Shown in pieces: positions 35,318 through 42,519 of a DNA stretch of 64,000 nt. The notes beneath the pieces are model-generated. The model worked only from the letters and a program-made list of their open reading frames with translations, did no database searches and was not told the DNA's origin. This DNA comes from Anaerolineae bacterium (lineage in GTDB: Bacteria; Chloroflexota; Anaerolineae; Anaerolineales; Anaerolineaceae), in the NCBI GenBank assembly GCA_013178095.1, contig JABLXK010000002.1, positions 303,324 through 367,323 of the forward strand, written 5' to 3'. A program made the position numbers and the translations under genes. The stretch's first letter is position 1, and each line of letters opens with the position of its first letter.

Positions 35318-35707
35318 ATGAAGTTGTACAAGTTAATAGCAGCATCAATCGCAATCTTGCTTGCGGTGAGCTCCTGCGGAACCAAGACGACTGCAAATGC
35401 TGCAGATGCCACTTATGCCTACCTGCAAGCCCTGGCATCCAAGGATAAGGATGCTGTGATTTCGTTGACATGCAAAGAGTCGGAAGAACAGGCTATCCTG
35501 GAAGTGGATGCGTTAATGTCAGTGGATGCCGCTTTGAATGACATCCGTTGCGAACAGACCGGCCAGGATGGTGATGAGGTATTGGTAGTTTGCACAGGCA
35601 GCCTGGACCTCACCTATAACAATGAAATCCGCGCCATTGAATTGGATAAGCGCACTTATTCCATGAAGATGGAAGACGGTCAATGGCGGGTTTGCTCCTA
35701 TAAATAA
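35318..35707 (+). CDS. Small lipoprotein, first gene of Dlt-like operon
   Basis: Lipobox LLAVSSC; stop TAA (35705-35707) overlaps the next ATG (35707-35709) as TAATG. Confidence 0.7.
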   Translation: MKLYKLIAASIAILLAVSSCGTKTTANAADATYAYLQALASKDKDAVISLTCKESEEQAILEVDALMSVDAALNDIRCEQTGQDGDEVLVVCTGSLDLTYNNEIRAIELDKRTYSMKMEDGQWRVCSYK

Positions 35708-35820
35708 TGCCGAATCGAAAAGAAGAAAACCTGCTGGCGATCTTGTTGTGCCTGATATTGGTGGGATTGATCATCCTGACAGCAGATAATTCGCCGCTCT
35801 GGATTTACCAGGGTTTTTAA
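35707..35820 (+). CDS. DltX-like single-TM microprotein (37 aa), absent from ORF track
   Basis: MPNRKEENLLAILLCLILVGLIILTADNSPLWIYQGF: one TM helix then C-terminal WIYQGF, like the FIYNEF C-terminus of DltX; TAATG overlaps on both sides; directly upstream of an MBOAT. Confidence 0.8.
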   Translation: MPNRKEENLLAILLCLILVGLIILTADNSPLWIYQGF

Positions 35821-39572: not shown

Positions 39573-41261
39573 TTGAATTTTTCCAAGCGTTTATTGAAAT
39601 TGGCCGGGGATTATCCCGACAGGGAAATCATCCATTTCCTTAAAACCGGCGAAAGCGATCAGCATTTAACCTACCGCGCTTTGATCGAAGGCGCCGGCCG
39701 CTATCAAGCTGCCTTGAGATCGCGGAACGTTCTCCAAGGCGAAGTGGTTATCCTGATTTTGCAGCAAAGCATCGAATTGGTATATGCCTATTTCGGGACA
39801 ATCCTAAATGGATCCATTCCTTCAATCATGCCATTCCTTACTGAAAAATTGCTACCTGAAAAATATCGCAAAGATCTTGTTTCACTGATCGAAATCACCC
39901 AACCGTCGGCAATTCTCACATACTGCGATTTCATTGACGAACTGTCGGAAATCCAGGCCAACAATGCGTTCATCAAGGCATTACTCTTCAGCGAGGAAAT
40001 CGAAACAGGCGCTGACGTGCTGGCCGGGACCGGAAATTATCCCGGAATAGAGCGAGACGGGGATGATATCGTTTTATTGCAACATTCATCCGGTTCGACG
40101 GGCCTGCAAAAAGGCGTTGCACTGACGCATCAGGCAGTATTCCATCAACTAGATTGTTATTCTAAAACCATACGCCTGTCATCCCGGGACGTGATCGTCA
40201 GTTGGCTGCCGCTTTATCATGACATGGGTTTGATCGCCTGTTTCTTGATGCCGATTTTGTACAATATTCCCCTGGTGATCATGTCGCCTTTCGATTGGGT
40301 GCGAGCGCCGCATCGCCTTTTTCAGGCTATTTCTCATTACAGGGGAACTTTGTGCTGGCTGCCGAATTTCGCCTACAATTTCTGTGCTCAAAAGATCCGG
40401 CCGGCCGATATGGAGGGTATCGAGCTTTCAACATTGCGGGCTGTGATCAACTGTTCGGAACCTATGCGACGCAGCAGTCATCAGGCTTTCCTTGAACGTT
40501 TTTCGCAGTATGGACTACAGCCGTCCGCCATTGCCACCTGCTACGCAATGGCGGAAAATGTGTTCGCGGTCACCCAGGACGGCATCGACAAAGCGGTCAC
40601 ATATGATGAAATCGATCAGGAGACTTTCCAAAAGGACAAGATTGCCCGGAAAGTTTTTAACAACCGACCAAGCATATACCAGGTATCCGCTGGAAAACCG
40701 ATCGCCAACACACAAGTACGGATCATGGATGGCGACGGTAGGGAATTGCCAGATAGACATGTAGGCGAAATTGTCATAAAAAGCAATTGCATGCTCACGG
40801 GTTATTATCACAGGGAAGACGAAACAGTGAATTCATTCAGCGAAGGTTGGTTTAAAACCGGTGATTTAGGATACCTGGCTGAGGGAGAACTATACGTCAG
40901 CGGACGCAAGAAGGATTTGATCATCGTCGGCGGGAAAAACGTTTATCCTCAAGACATCGAGGCGGTGGTCAATGAAGTTGAAGGCGTCCACCCCGGCCGT
41001 TGTGTTGCATTCGGTGTATTCAATGAGGAAAAAGGGACTGAAGACGTGGTGGTGATTGCGGAACTGGAGAGGGATTTTGCTGAAAAAGATAGGCAGGTCG
41101 CCGATCAGATCAGGAAAATGGTCACCCAAAGTACCGCGGTTGCGCTGCGTCAGGTATACCTGGTGAATGACTTCTGGTTGATAAAAACCAGCAGCGGTAA
41201 AATAGCGAGAGCAGCCAATAAGGAAAAATATTTATTTGAAACGGGTCACCATGCTGGATGA
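39573..41261 (+). CDS. Acyl-AMP ligase, FAAL-like
   Basis: LLQHSSGSTGLQKGVALTH, FAAL-typical SWLPLYHDMGLI, PNFAYNFC, CYAMAENVFA, GWFKTGDLGYL, GRKKDLIIVGGKNVYPQDIE; TTG start. Confidence 0.88.
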   Translation: MNFSKRLLKLAGDYPDREIIHFLKTGESDQHLTYRALIEGAGRYQAALRSRNVLQGEVVILILQQSIELVYAYFGTILNGSIPSIMPFLTEKLLPEKYRKDLVSLIEITQPSAILTYCDFIDELSEIQANNAFIKALLFSEEIETGADVLAGTGNYPGIERDGDDIVLLQHSSGSTGLQKGVALTHQAVFHQLDCYSKTIRLSSRDVIVSWLPLYHDMGLIACFLMPILYNIPLVIMSPFDWVRAPHRLFQAISHYRGTLCWLPNFAYNFCAQKIRPADMEGIELSTLRAVINCSEPMRRSSHQAFLERFSQYGLQPSAIATCYAMAENVFAVTQDGIDKAVTYDEIDQETFQKDKIARKVFNNRPSIYQVSAGKPIANTQVRIMDGDGRELPDRHVGEIVIKSNCMLTGYYHREDETVNSFSEGWFKTGDLGYLAEGELYVSGRKKDLIIVGGKNVYPQDIEAVVNEVEGVHPGRCVAFGVFNEEKGTEDVVVIAELERDFAEKDRQVADQIRKMVTQSTAVALRQVYLVNDFWLIKTSSGKIARAANKEKYLFETGHHAG

Positions 41262-42519
41262 AATCAGAAAAATCACCAAGTTCCTCATCCACGAACCCAG
41301 GTACATTGGACTGAGAAGAAAGATCCTGGTCATCCTGGCAATATTTATCGCTTTAATTTTTACGAATCGATTCCTGGTGATCCAGGCAGCCGACAAAGGC
41401 GCCTTCTATATTTCTCTAGAGCGGGTAAAGGAAATATTCTGGGGCAGTGCCAGCGTTTATAGTAAAGAGATCGCGCCCGCTGCAACAGAATTATCAAAAC
41501 TTGGGATAAAAAACCTCACTCAAGAGGTTTTCAAATTACCGTTATTCGCGATGATCTTTTACCTGCCATTTTCATTCATTAGGGATTTCAATTGGGCGCT
41601 GGCGTTATGGCTGGCAGCTAACGAGATCATTTGTTATTTTATTTTGAGCGTATTCCTGACAATAATTGAAAAGAAATTAGAAGATATCTACATGGCGGCA
41701 GCCGCCGGTTTGATGGCACTGGCATATTTTGTAACAGCCAACATCCTGTCAACCAATCTATCTCTCATCCAGTTGTTATTAATCCTGCTGGCATTCCAGA
41801 AAGCCAAAGACAACCAGTTCATCTTTTCCGGTATTCTTTTAGGGTTAGCCTTCTTCAATCCTTACGAATTTTTTATTCCCCTCGCAATATTCTTCATGCT
41901 GAATATCTACAATGGACGCGGTTTGGTGAATGGATGGATGCTGATTTCATCCACGTTATTCGTGTTAGCCTTTGTCATTTTCGACCCGCGCTGGCTGCTG
42001 GAATTATTGAAAGTGGTTCTGCTGAAACCAGATTTCTACCCTTTCATCAGCTTCAACCAGTATATCCAGAATATTTACCCGGAAGTCAATACACGACTGC
42101 TGGATTTATTCCCAATTCTCATCCTTGTGTGGATTGTAATCGAGTGGCTGCGCACCCCGAAAGAATATTACCTGCAGGAATTATGGCTGCTGGCGCTGGG
42201 TTTTACGCTCACACCATTGTTGAATATGTGGGATAAGACATACGCTTTAACCGGTTACGCATTCGTGCTGATTTTCACGACCGCGCTGTGGATCGATCGG
42301 GCGCCTTCTAAATTCCGGACGTTTTCTTTCGCGGTAAATATTTTATTATTAATCGTGCTGCCGGCAGGGCAAATGCTTATCCGCCACCGAGCGCTCGCTC
42401 CTGCGGATTTTCTCGTGTACAACCTGGTTTTCACTCTTATTCTTTTGATGAACCTCTATTGGGTCAGGTTGTGGGTGATCAATCCGTATTATTCGGTCAA
42501 CAAATTGGATGGCATCTAA
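41251..42519 (+). CDS. Multi-TM membrane protein, GT-C/GT87-like candidate
   Basis: About 10 hydrophobic segments; overlaps the ligase gene by 11 bp; weak similarity in layout to DUF2029/GT87 proteins. Confidence 0.5.
   Translation: MLDEIRKITKFLIHEPRYIGLRRKILVILAIFIALIFTNRFLVIQAADKGAFYISLERVKEIFWGSASVYSKEIAPAATELSKLGIKNLTQEVFKLPLFAMIFYLPFSFIRDFNWALALWLAANEIICYFILSVFLTIIEKKLEDIYMAAAAGLMALAYFVTANILSTNLSLIQLLLILLAFQKAKDNQFIFSGILLGLAFFNPYEFFIPLAIFFMLNIYNGRGLVNGWMLISSTLFVLAFVIFDPRWLLELLKVVLLKPDFYPFISFNQYIQNIYPEVNTRLLDLFPILILVWIVIEWLRTPKEYYLQELWLLALGFTLTPLLNMWDKTYALTGYAFVLIFTTALWIDRAPSKFRTFSFAVNILLLIVLPAGQMLIRHRALAPADFLVYNLVFTLILLMNLYWVRLWVINPYYSVNKLDGI

What the first reader, a model, noticed from the sequence alone, without database searches (positions are those of the whole stretch)
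35318..42519. Dlt-like operon with a FAAL-type ligase: candidate extracytoplasmic acylation system
Seen directly: eight same-strand genes with near-zero spacing (two TAATG overlaps, then gaps of 1, 2, 3 and 3 bp, then an 11-bp overlap), bounded by a terminator at 35232-35268. Order: lipoprotein, DltX-like microprotein, MBOAT, DltD-like SGNH, SGNH-like lipoprotein, DltC-like ACP, acyl-AMP ligase, multi-TM protein. Established: in dlt, DltA loads D-Ala on DltC, DltB (MBOAT) moves it across the membrane, and DltX/DltD pass it to teichoic acid. Here the ligase looks like a fatty-acyl-AMP ligase, not DltA, and there are two SGNH-like proteins. Inference: an analogous pathway moving a different acyl group (fatty, hydroxy or short acyl) to a surface polymer or glycolipid.
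Basis: partly seen in the sequence, partly recalled or inferred. Interest (0 to 1): 0.88.

Follow-up and report, generated by a model that had tools for sequence, protein, structure and literature searches.

The report
FAAL-fed Dlt-like envelope acylation operon
A gene set found in many Anaerolineae bacteria looks built to activate a fatty acid inside the cell and pass it through the membrane onto a surface molecule, using the same relay as the D-alanine (Dlt) pathway of Gram-positive bacteria but with a different loading enzyme.

Summary
The window (genus of Pelolinea submarina, Anaerolineae) carries lipoprotein, 37-aa microprotein, DltB-like MBOAT, SGNH, SGNH-like lipoprotein, ACP, fatty-acyl-AMP ligase (FAAL) and a GT87-like membrane protein. 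The first seven recur in the same order across Anaerolineae.

The microprotein is the strongest piece. Its last six residues, WIYQGF, match the DltX/PatA "acyl-shuttle" FXYXXF except for the first residue. They are nearly invariant in 93 recruited members while their codons vary. The four other MBOATs of this genome carry such a motif fused at their own C-terminus; this MBOAT lacks it. In 397 class genomes, microprotein and MBOAT co-occur in 86 of 87, and MBOAT and FAAL in 91 of 94. The ligase is not DltA (71 bits, cut-off 560).

Best reading: FAAL loads a fatty acid on the ACP, the MBOAT moves it onto the microprotein tyrosine, and SGNH passes it to an extracytoplasmic acceptor. Acyl group and acceptor are unknown. 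Papers I could read say other MBOAT/SGNH pathways lack both carrier protein and microprotein, so I call it a new variant of a known kind. The GT87-like gene is not core; five of eleven checked MBOAT genomes gave no FAAL match.

The parts
35232..35268 (+). Rho-independent-type hairpin plus T-run ending the upstream GNAT gene; bounds the operon
   Evidence: read in sequence; a comparable hairpin precedes the P. submarina operon
35318..35707 (+). P1: small lipoprotein (lipobox Cys20, four further invariant Cys; weak NTF2-like/Rv0361-type similarity)
35707..35820 (+). P2: 37-aa single-TM microprotein, DltX-like; C-terminus PLWIYQGF
   Evidence: no Pfam or NCBIfam match
35820..37259 (+). P3: MBOAT, DltB-like, lacking the C-terminal motif-bearing extension; conserved His347 and His394
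37261..38367 (+). P4: membrane-anchored SGNH-fold protein (G94-D95-S96, N285-E-P, D329, H345 invariant)
38370..39314 (+). P5: SGNH-fold lipoprotein with GDC instead of GDS in most operon members
39318..39569 (+). P6: acyl carrier protein, invariant Ser40 in a DltC-like GLIDSF motif
39573..41261 (+). P7: fatty-acyl-AMP ligase (FAAL-type), TTG start
41251..42519 (+). P8: multi-TM GT87-like (GT-C) protein; accessory in the genus, not core

Best explanation
A carrier-protein-fed MBOAT-SGNH pathway for extracytoplasmic O-acylation. (1) The FAAL adenylates a fatty acid and loads it on the phosphopantetheine of the ACP. (2) The DltB-like MBOAT takes the acyl group from acyl-ACP at the cytoplasmic face and, with its conserved His, transfers it to the tyrosine of the microprotein hexapeptide WIYQGF at the outer face. 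(3) The acyl-Tyr is off-loaded to Ser96 of the SGNH protein. (4) That protein, assisted by the Cys-type SGNH lipoprotein and the small lipoprotein, transfers it to a hydroxyl of an extracytoplasmic acceptor, probably a glycan or glycolipid. Shown here: gene content, conserved order, families, invariant residues and co-occurrence. Inferred by homology with Dlt and PatAB: steps 2 and 3. Inferred from the FAAL class: step 1 and a fatty (about C6-C18) rather than amino-acyl group. Guess: the acceptor and the roles of the two lipoproteins.
For: Ligase is FAAL-type: 353 bits to NCBIfam FAAL PRK09192, best PDB matches are FAALs (3kxw, 3pbk, 5hm3, 5ey9), and the region 334-371 aligns to FAALs while CoA-ligase alignments break there. 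FAAL-type residues M218 and F266 and catalytic Lys543 are conserved in 57 members. ACP Ser40 is invariant and DltC is among its PDB matches. The MBOAT matches only DltB in the PDB (E 9e-45) and TIGR04091 at 217 bits; both candidate active-site His are invariant. Microprotein: A(-27), P(-8), Y(-4), G(-2), F(-1) invariant, W/I/Q 92 of 93, synonymous codons vary, positive N-terminus (N-in, C-out). All four other MBOATs of this genome end in a fused motif (FVYFKF, FIYGEF, FLYSEF, FVYMDF), as do MBOATs of three DltA-like loci of relatives, whereas this clade has none. Co-occurrence in 397 genomes: micro/MBOAT 86 of 87, MBOAT/FAAL 91 of 94. SGNH P4 occurs in 11 of 11 MBOAT genomes, even when unlinked. 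In G290 the microprotein follows the FAAL gene while the MBOAT is on another contig. The acyl-Tyr relay is established for Dlt and PatAB (PMC12148441).
Against: No biochemistry. Five of eleven MBOAT genomes checked had no FAAL match at E<=1e-100, so the loader may be replaceable or more diverged there. In 9 loci with ample flank the microprotein is not adjacent. P4 is not recognisably DltD. FAAL substrate cannot be predicted from sequence with confidence (PMC11837247). The co-occurrence statistics are not corrected for phylogeny. No complex was modelled.
Confidence: 0.72

Rival explanations
1. An ordinary Dlt system: D-alanine is loaded on the carrier and esterified to a teichoic-acid-like polymer, with a diverged ligase.
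For: MBOAT, ACP motif and microprotein are all Dlt-like. The genome has LytR-CpsA-Psr proteins, so wall glycopolymers are possible.
Against: The ligase scores 71 bits against DltA (cut-off 560) and 353 against FAAL; no genome among 31 has a ligase over the DltA cut-off. No DltD or DltX family match. Relatives carry separate DltA-like loci with a fused-motif MBOAT.
Confidence: 0.05
2. Same relay, but the acyl group is short or functionalised (acetyl, hydroxyacyl, lactyl, branched) rather than a plain fatty acid.
For: Known MBOAT-SGNH systems move acetyl or D-Ala (PMC12148441); FAAL substrates in the literature go down to C4 (PMC11837247).
Against: FAALs as a class activate fatty acids; characterised acetylation systems use acetyl-CoA and need no ligase or ACP.
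Confidence: 0.17
3. FAAL and ACP form a separate fatty-acid activation or natural-product unit that merely sits beside an MBOAT-SGNH O-acetylation system.
For: Stand-alone FAAL plus ACP pairs usually serve PKS/NRPS pathways (PMC11837247); some genomes have the MBOAT and SGNH but no FAAL match.
Against: No PKS/NRPS family emerged among the recurrent neighbours that were annotated. Co-occurrence is 91 of 94. This MBOAT lacks the fused motif and is DltB-like, the only MBOAT said to use a carrier protein (PMC10213974). Microprotein and FAAL stay together when the MBOAT is elsewhere (G290).
Confidence: 0.06

Closest known systems
Dlt pathway (DltXABCD, Gram-positive D-alanylation of teichoic acids)
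   Same: Separate acyl-shuttle microprotein, MBOAT without the motif-bearing C-terminal extension, stand-alone carrier protein, AMP-forming ligase, SGNH protein
   Different: FAAL instead of DltA; SGNH not DltD family; extra Cys-type SGNH lipoprotein and small lipoprotein; microprotein not matched by any family model; MBOAT below the DltB cut-off; found in Anaerolineae (Chloroflexota)
PatAB / AlgIJFX-type MBOAT-SGNH O-acetylation
   Same: MBOAT, hexapeptide Tyr shuttle and SGNH; alginate acetylation also uses two SGNH-like proteins (PMC4148444)
   Different: Shuttle motif fused to the MBOAT; acyl-CoA donor; no carrier protein or microprotein (PMC12148441)
FAAL-ACP starter modules (JamA/JamB, CylA, mycobacterial FadD/PKS)
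   Same: FAAL with adjacent stand-alone ACP (PMC11837247)
   Different: Downstream partner here is a membrane acyltransferase, not a PKS or NRPS

Membership tests
Dlt system | D-alanine ligase DltA (TIGR01734, cut-off 560 bits) | tested here: not met
   71.5 bits
Dlt system | DltB (TIGR04091, cut-off 375 bits) | tested here: not met
   216.6 bits, E 6e-64: clearly related but below cut-off
Dlt system | DltC carrier (TIGR01688 / PRK05087) | tested here: not met
   17 and 21 bits, below cut-offs of 52 and 68; phosphopantetheine Ser motif present
Dlt system | DltD-family SGNH protein | tested here: not met
   no DltD model among Pfam or NCBIfam matches at E<=1; DltD not among the 50 best PDB folds
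Dlt system | Separate membrane microprotein with C-terminal FXYXXF shuttle motif | tested here: met
   WIYQGF at the extreme C-terminus, W for the first F; no match to family models
Dlt system | D-Ala esters on teichoic acid | not testable with these tools
   needs chemistry
MBOAT superfamily | PF03062 above cut-off, conserved active-site His | tested here: met
   71 bits vs 27; His347 and His394 invariant in 26
MBOAT-SGNH acyl-Tyr pathways | MBOAT plus SGNH plus Tyr hexapeptide | tested here: met
   the acyl-Tyr itself is not testable here
FAAL | FAAL-specific insertion and conserved Met/Phe plugging the CoA pocket | tested here: met
   region 334-371 aligns to FAAL structures and is skipped in CoA-ligase matches; M218 and F266 98% conserved (features from PMC8460268; residue equivalence read from the motif, not from a structure)
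FAAL | Strict transfer to holo-ACP, not CoA | not testable with these tools
   needs assay

The most novel reading that the evidence does not exclude
The system esterifies medium- or long-chain fatty acids to an abundant extracytoplasmic glycan, so that a nominally monoderm Anaerolineae cell builds a lipid-bearing outer layer without lipopolysaccharide or BAM machinery: a separate, carrier-protein-based way of lipidating the bacterial surface.
Probability: 0.25. Interest if true: 0.9.

Novelty: new variant of a known kind. Interest (0 to 1): 0.72.

Why it matters
The open literature I could read states that only DltB among MBOATs uses a carrier protein and that other MBOAT-SGNH pathways lack a DltX-like microprotein (PMC10213974, PMC12148441). 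This module departs from both statements while keeping the same apparent shuttle chemistry, and it joins the FAAL world (so far mainly natural-product and mycobacterial lipid starters) to envelope modification. The Chloroflexota envelope is unresolved: multilayered or diderm-like in places, without BAM or LPS genes (PMC13319060). The system is present in cultured organisms (Pelolinea submarina with the full operon; Leptolinea tardivitalis, dispersed), so the acyl group and acceptor can be looked for directly.

Tried and rejected
Ordinary dlt operon: rejected by the ligase test. Conserved neighbours that might name the acyl group or acceptor: clustering of 659 flanking ORFs gave no family present in more than 17 of 110 loci, and the largest clusters are ordinary (ABC ATPase, FtsY-type GTPase, S1 RNA-binding, release factor, signalling, a glycosyltransferase). 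GT87-like gene as core: rejected, limited to close relatives and one other locus. PDB sequence search with the P4 profile gave no meaningful match. FAAL chain length was not predicted, because published predictors give ranges only. A neighbourhood survey around Pelotomaculum failed because the tool does not accept that centre. The primary paper on DltX chemistry is not held, so that mechanism is cited through PMC12148441.

Full report
Observation. The window lies in a 2.94-Mb, 23-contig genome. Its closest relative with a name is Pelolinea submarina: the 3,519,887-bp contig of G003, same genus, has the length of the contig holding the protein named "AMP-binding protein [Pelolinea submarina]", 70% identical to the window ligase. 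NCBI places that species in Anaerolineaceae, Chloroflexota.

What the genes are. P3 is an MBOAT (71 bits, cut-off 27) whose only NCBIfam match is DltB, below its cut-off (216.6 of 375 bits), and whose only PDB sequence matches are DltB (E 9e-45). P6 is a phosphopantetheine carrier with invariant Ser40. P7 is FAAL-type: best NCBIfam match PRK09192 FAAL (353 bits), best PDB matches the FAALs 3kxw, 3pbk and FadD32 and FAAL-like polyketide synthase domains, with matches to CoA ligases breaking around residues 334-371, where the FAAL-specific insertion would lie. Against DltA it scores 71.5 bits with a cut-off of 560. P4 is confidently predicted (pLDDT 94) as an SGNH fold with an N-terminal membrane helix; its nearest solved folds are SGNH esterases and, at rank 19, the periplasmic domain of a Salmonella lipopolysaccharide acetyltransferase. 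P5 (pLDDT 90) is an SGNH fold nearest TesA thioesterase, but the Ser of GDS is Cys in 95% of 60 members, and in 25 of 31 operon-linked copies where the motif could be read. Its block-V His is not conserved in all members, so some copies may be inactive. P1 is a small lipoprotein with four further invariant Cys. P8 is GT87-like in a sister genome (27.3 bits, cut-off 25).

The microprotein. P2 has no Pfam or NCBIfam match, yet 32 homologues turned up in the first 40 loci, all ending in WIYQGF, and more in the second set, with variants WVYGGF, LIYRGF and FIYQGF in the most diverged loci. Over 93 members recruited by profile, Ala(-27), Pro(-8), Tyr(-4), Gly(-2) and Phe(-1) are invariant while Ile, Tyr, Gln, Gly and Phe codons vary freely; positive charges sit almost only before the helix, so the C-terminus should face outwards. 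The published shuttle motif is FXYXXF, in DltX as a separate microprotein and in PatA and others fused to the MBOAT (PMC12148441). The four other MBOATs of this genome end in FVYFKF, FIYGEF, FLYSEF and FVYMDF. Of 112 MBOAT ORFs above 350 bits in the loci, 109 lack such an ending; the three that have it are low-scoring paralogues. The shuttle is therefore split off, as in Dlt.

One system. Gene order lipoprotein-microprotein-MBOAT-SGNH-(SGNH2)-ACP-FAAL recurs across Anaerolineae. In 54 non-redundant loci with enough flank, 49 have the microprotein, 48 the SGNH, and 34 each the ACP and the FAAL within reach. A DNA pattern for WIYQGF-stop hits 87 of 397 class genomes and its reversed control none. 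Microprotein and MBOAT co-occur in 86 of 87, and MBOAT and FAAL in 91 of 94, with 10 FAAL-only genomes. The FAAL cut-off was set after seeing the scores and included some partial hits, and the p-values ignore phylogeny. Where genes are dispersed they can still be present: Leptolinea tardivitalis (G014, identified by its 42,875-bp contig) has the MBOAT on one contig and SGNH and FAAL on another; in G290 the microprotein follows the FAAL gene while the MBOAT lies elsewhere. SGNH P4 was found in 11 of 11 MBOAT genomes tested, FAAL at E<=1e-100 in 6 of 11, so the membrane relay is the stable core and the loading half is less constant.

Mechanism. By homology with Dlt and PatAB, the acyl group goes ligase, carrier, MBOAT, tyrosine, SGNH serine, acceptor. 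Because FAALs activate fatty acids and hand them to holo-ACP rather than CoA (PMC8460268), a fatty acyl group is the best guess; chain length cannot be predicted (PMC11837247). The acceptor is unknown. A GT87-like gene in the genus and two LytR-CpsA-Psr proteins in the genome make an extracytoplasmic glycan plausible, no more.

Known or new. A 2023 MBOAT review says DltB is the only MBOAT using a non-CoA donor (PMC10213974), and a 2025 paper says other MBOAT/SGNH pathways lack both carrier and microprotein (PMC12148441). No listed paper of the open library holds both a FAAL term and DltB or MBOAT (25 of 151 listed); subscription literature was not searchable. By family tests it is not a Dlt system; it works like one. 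The same survey shows further exceptions: DltA-like ligase, ACP and fused-motif MBOAT loci in relatives, and a microprotein outside dlt in Pelotomaculum.

Noticed in passing
L197 4879-10233; L198 4309-9603; L199 3381-8709: Relatives carry another locus type: DltA-like ligase, ACP (detected in L197 and L198 only), MBOAT with a fused motif (FIYMGF/FIYQGF) and a following protein of about 350 aa; possible carrier-fed MBOATs without a microprotein.
   Followed up: partly
L179 8412-11033: Pelotomaculum propionicicum: SGNH-like protein, short MBOAT and a 42-aa ORF ending FIYTDF inside a polysaccharide cluster with no ligase or ACP found adjacent; a DltX-like microprotein outside dlt.
   Followed up: partly
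L121, L142, L112, L169: Several tandem P5-type SGNH paralogues beside the operon, some with an N-terminal SH3-like domain and GDS rather than GDC.
   Followed up: no
L195 2024-6870: In the host genome another MBOAT (FLYSEF) and a 431-aa protein lie convergent to a small ACP-like ORF and a 626-aa AMP-forming ligase.
   Followed up: no
L177 6131-6247; L178 2620-2820: Diverged microproteins ending LIYRGF and FIYQGF, showing which motif positions tolerate change.
   Followed up: no
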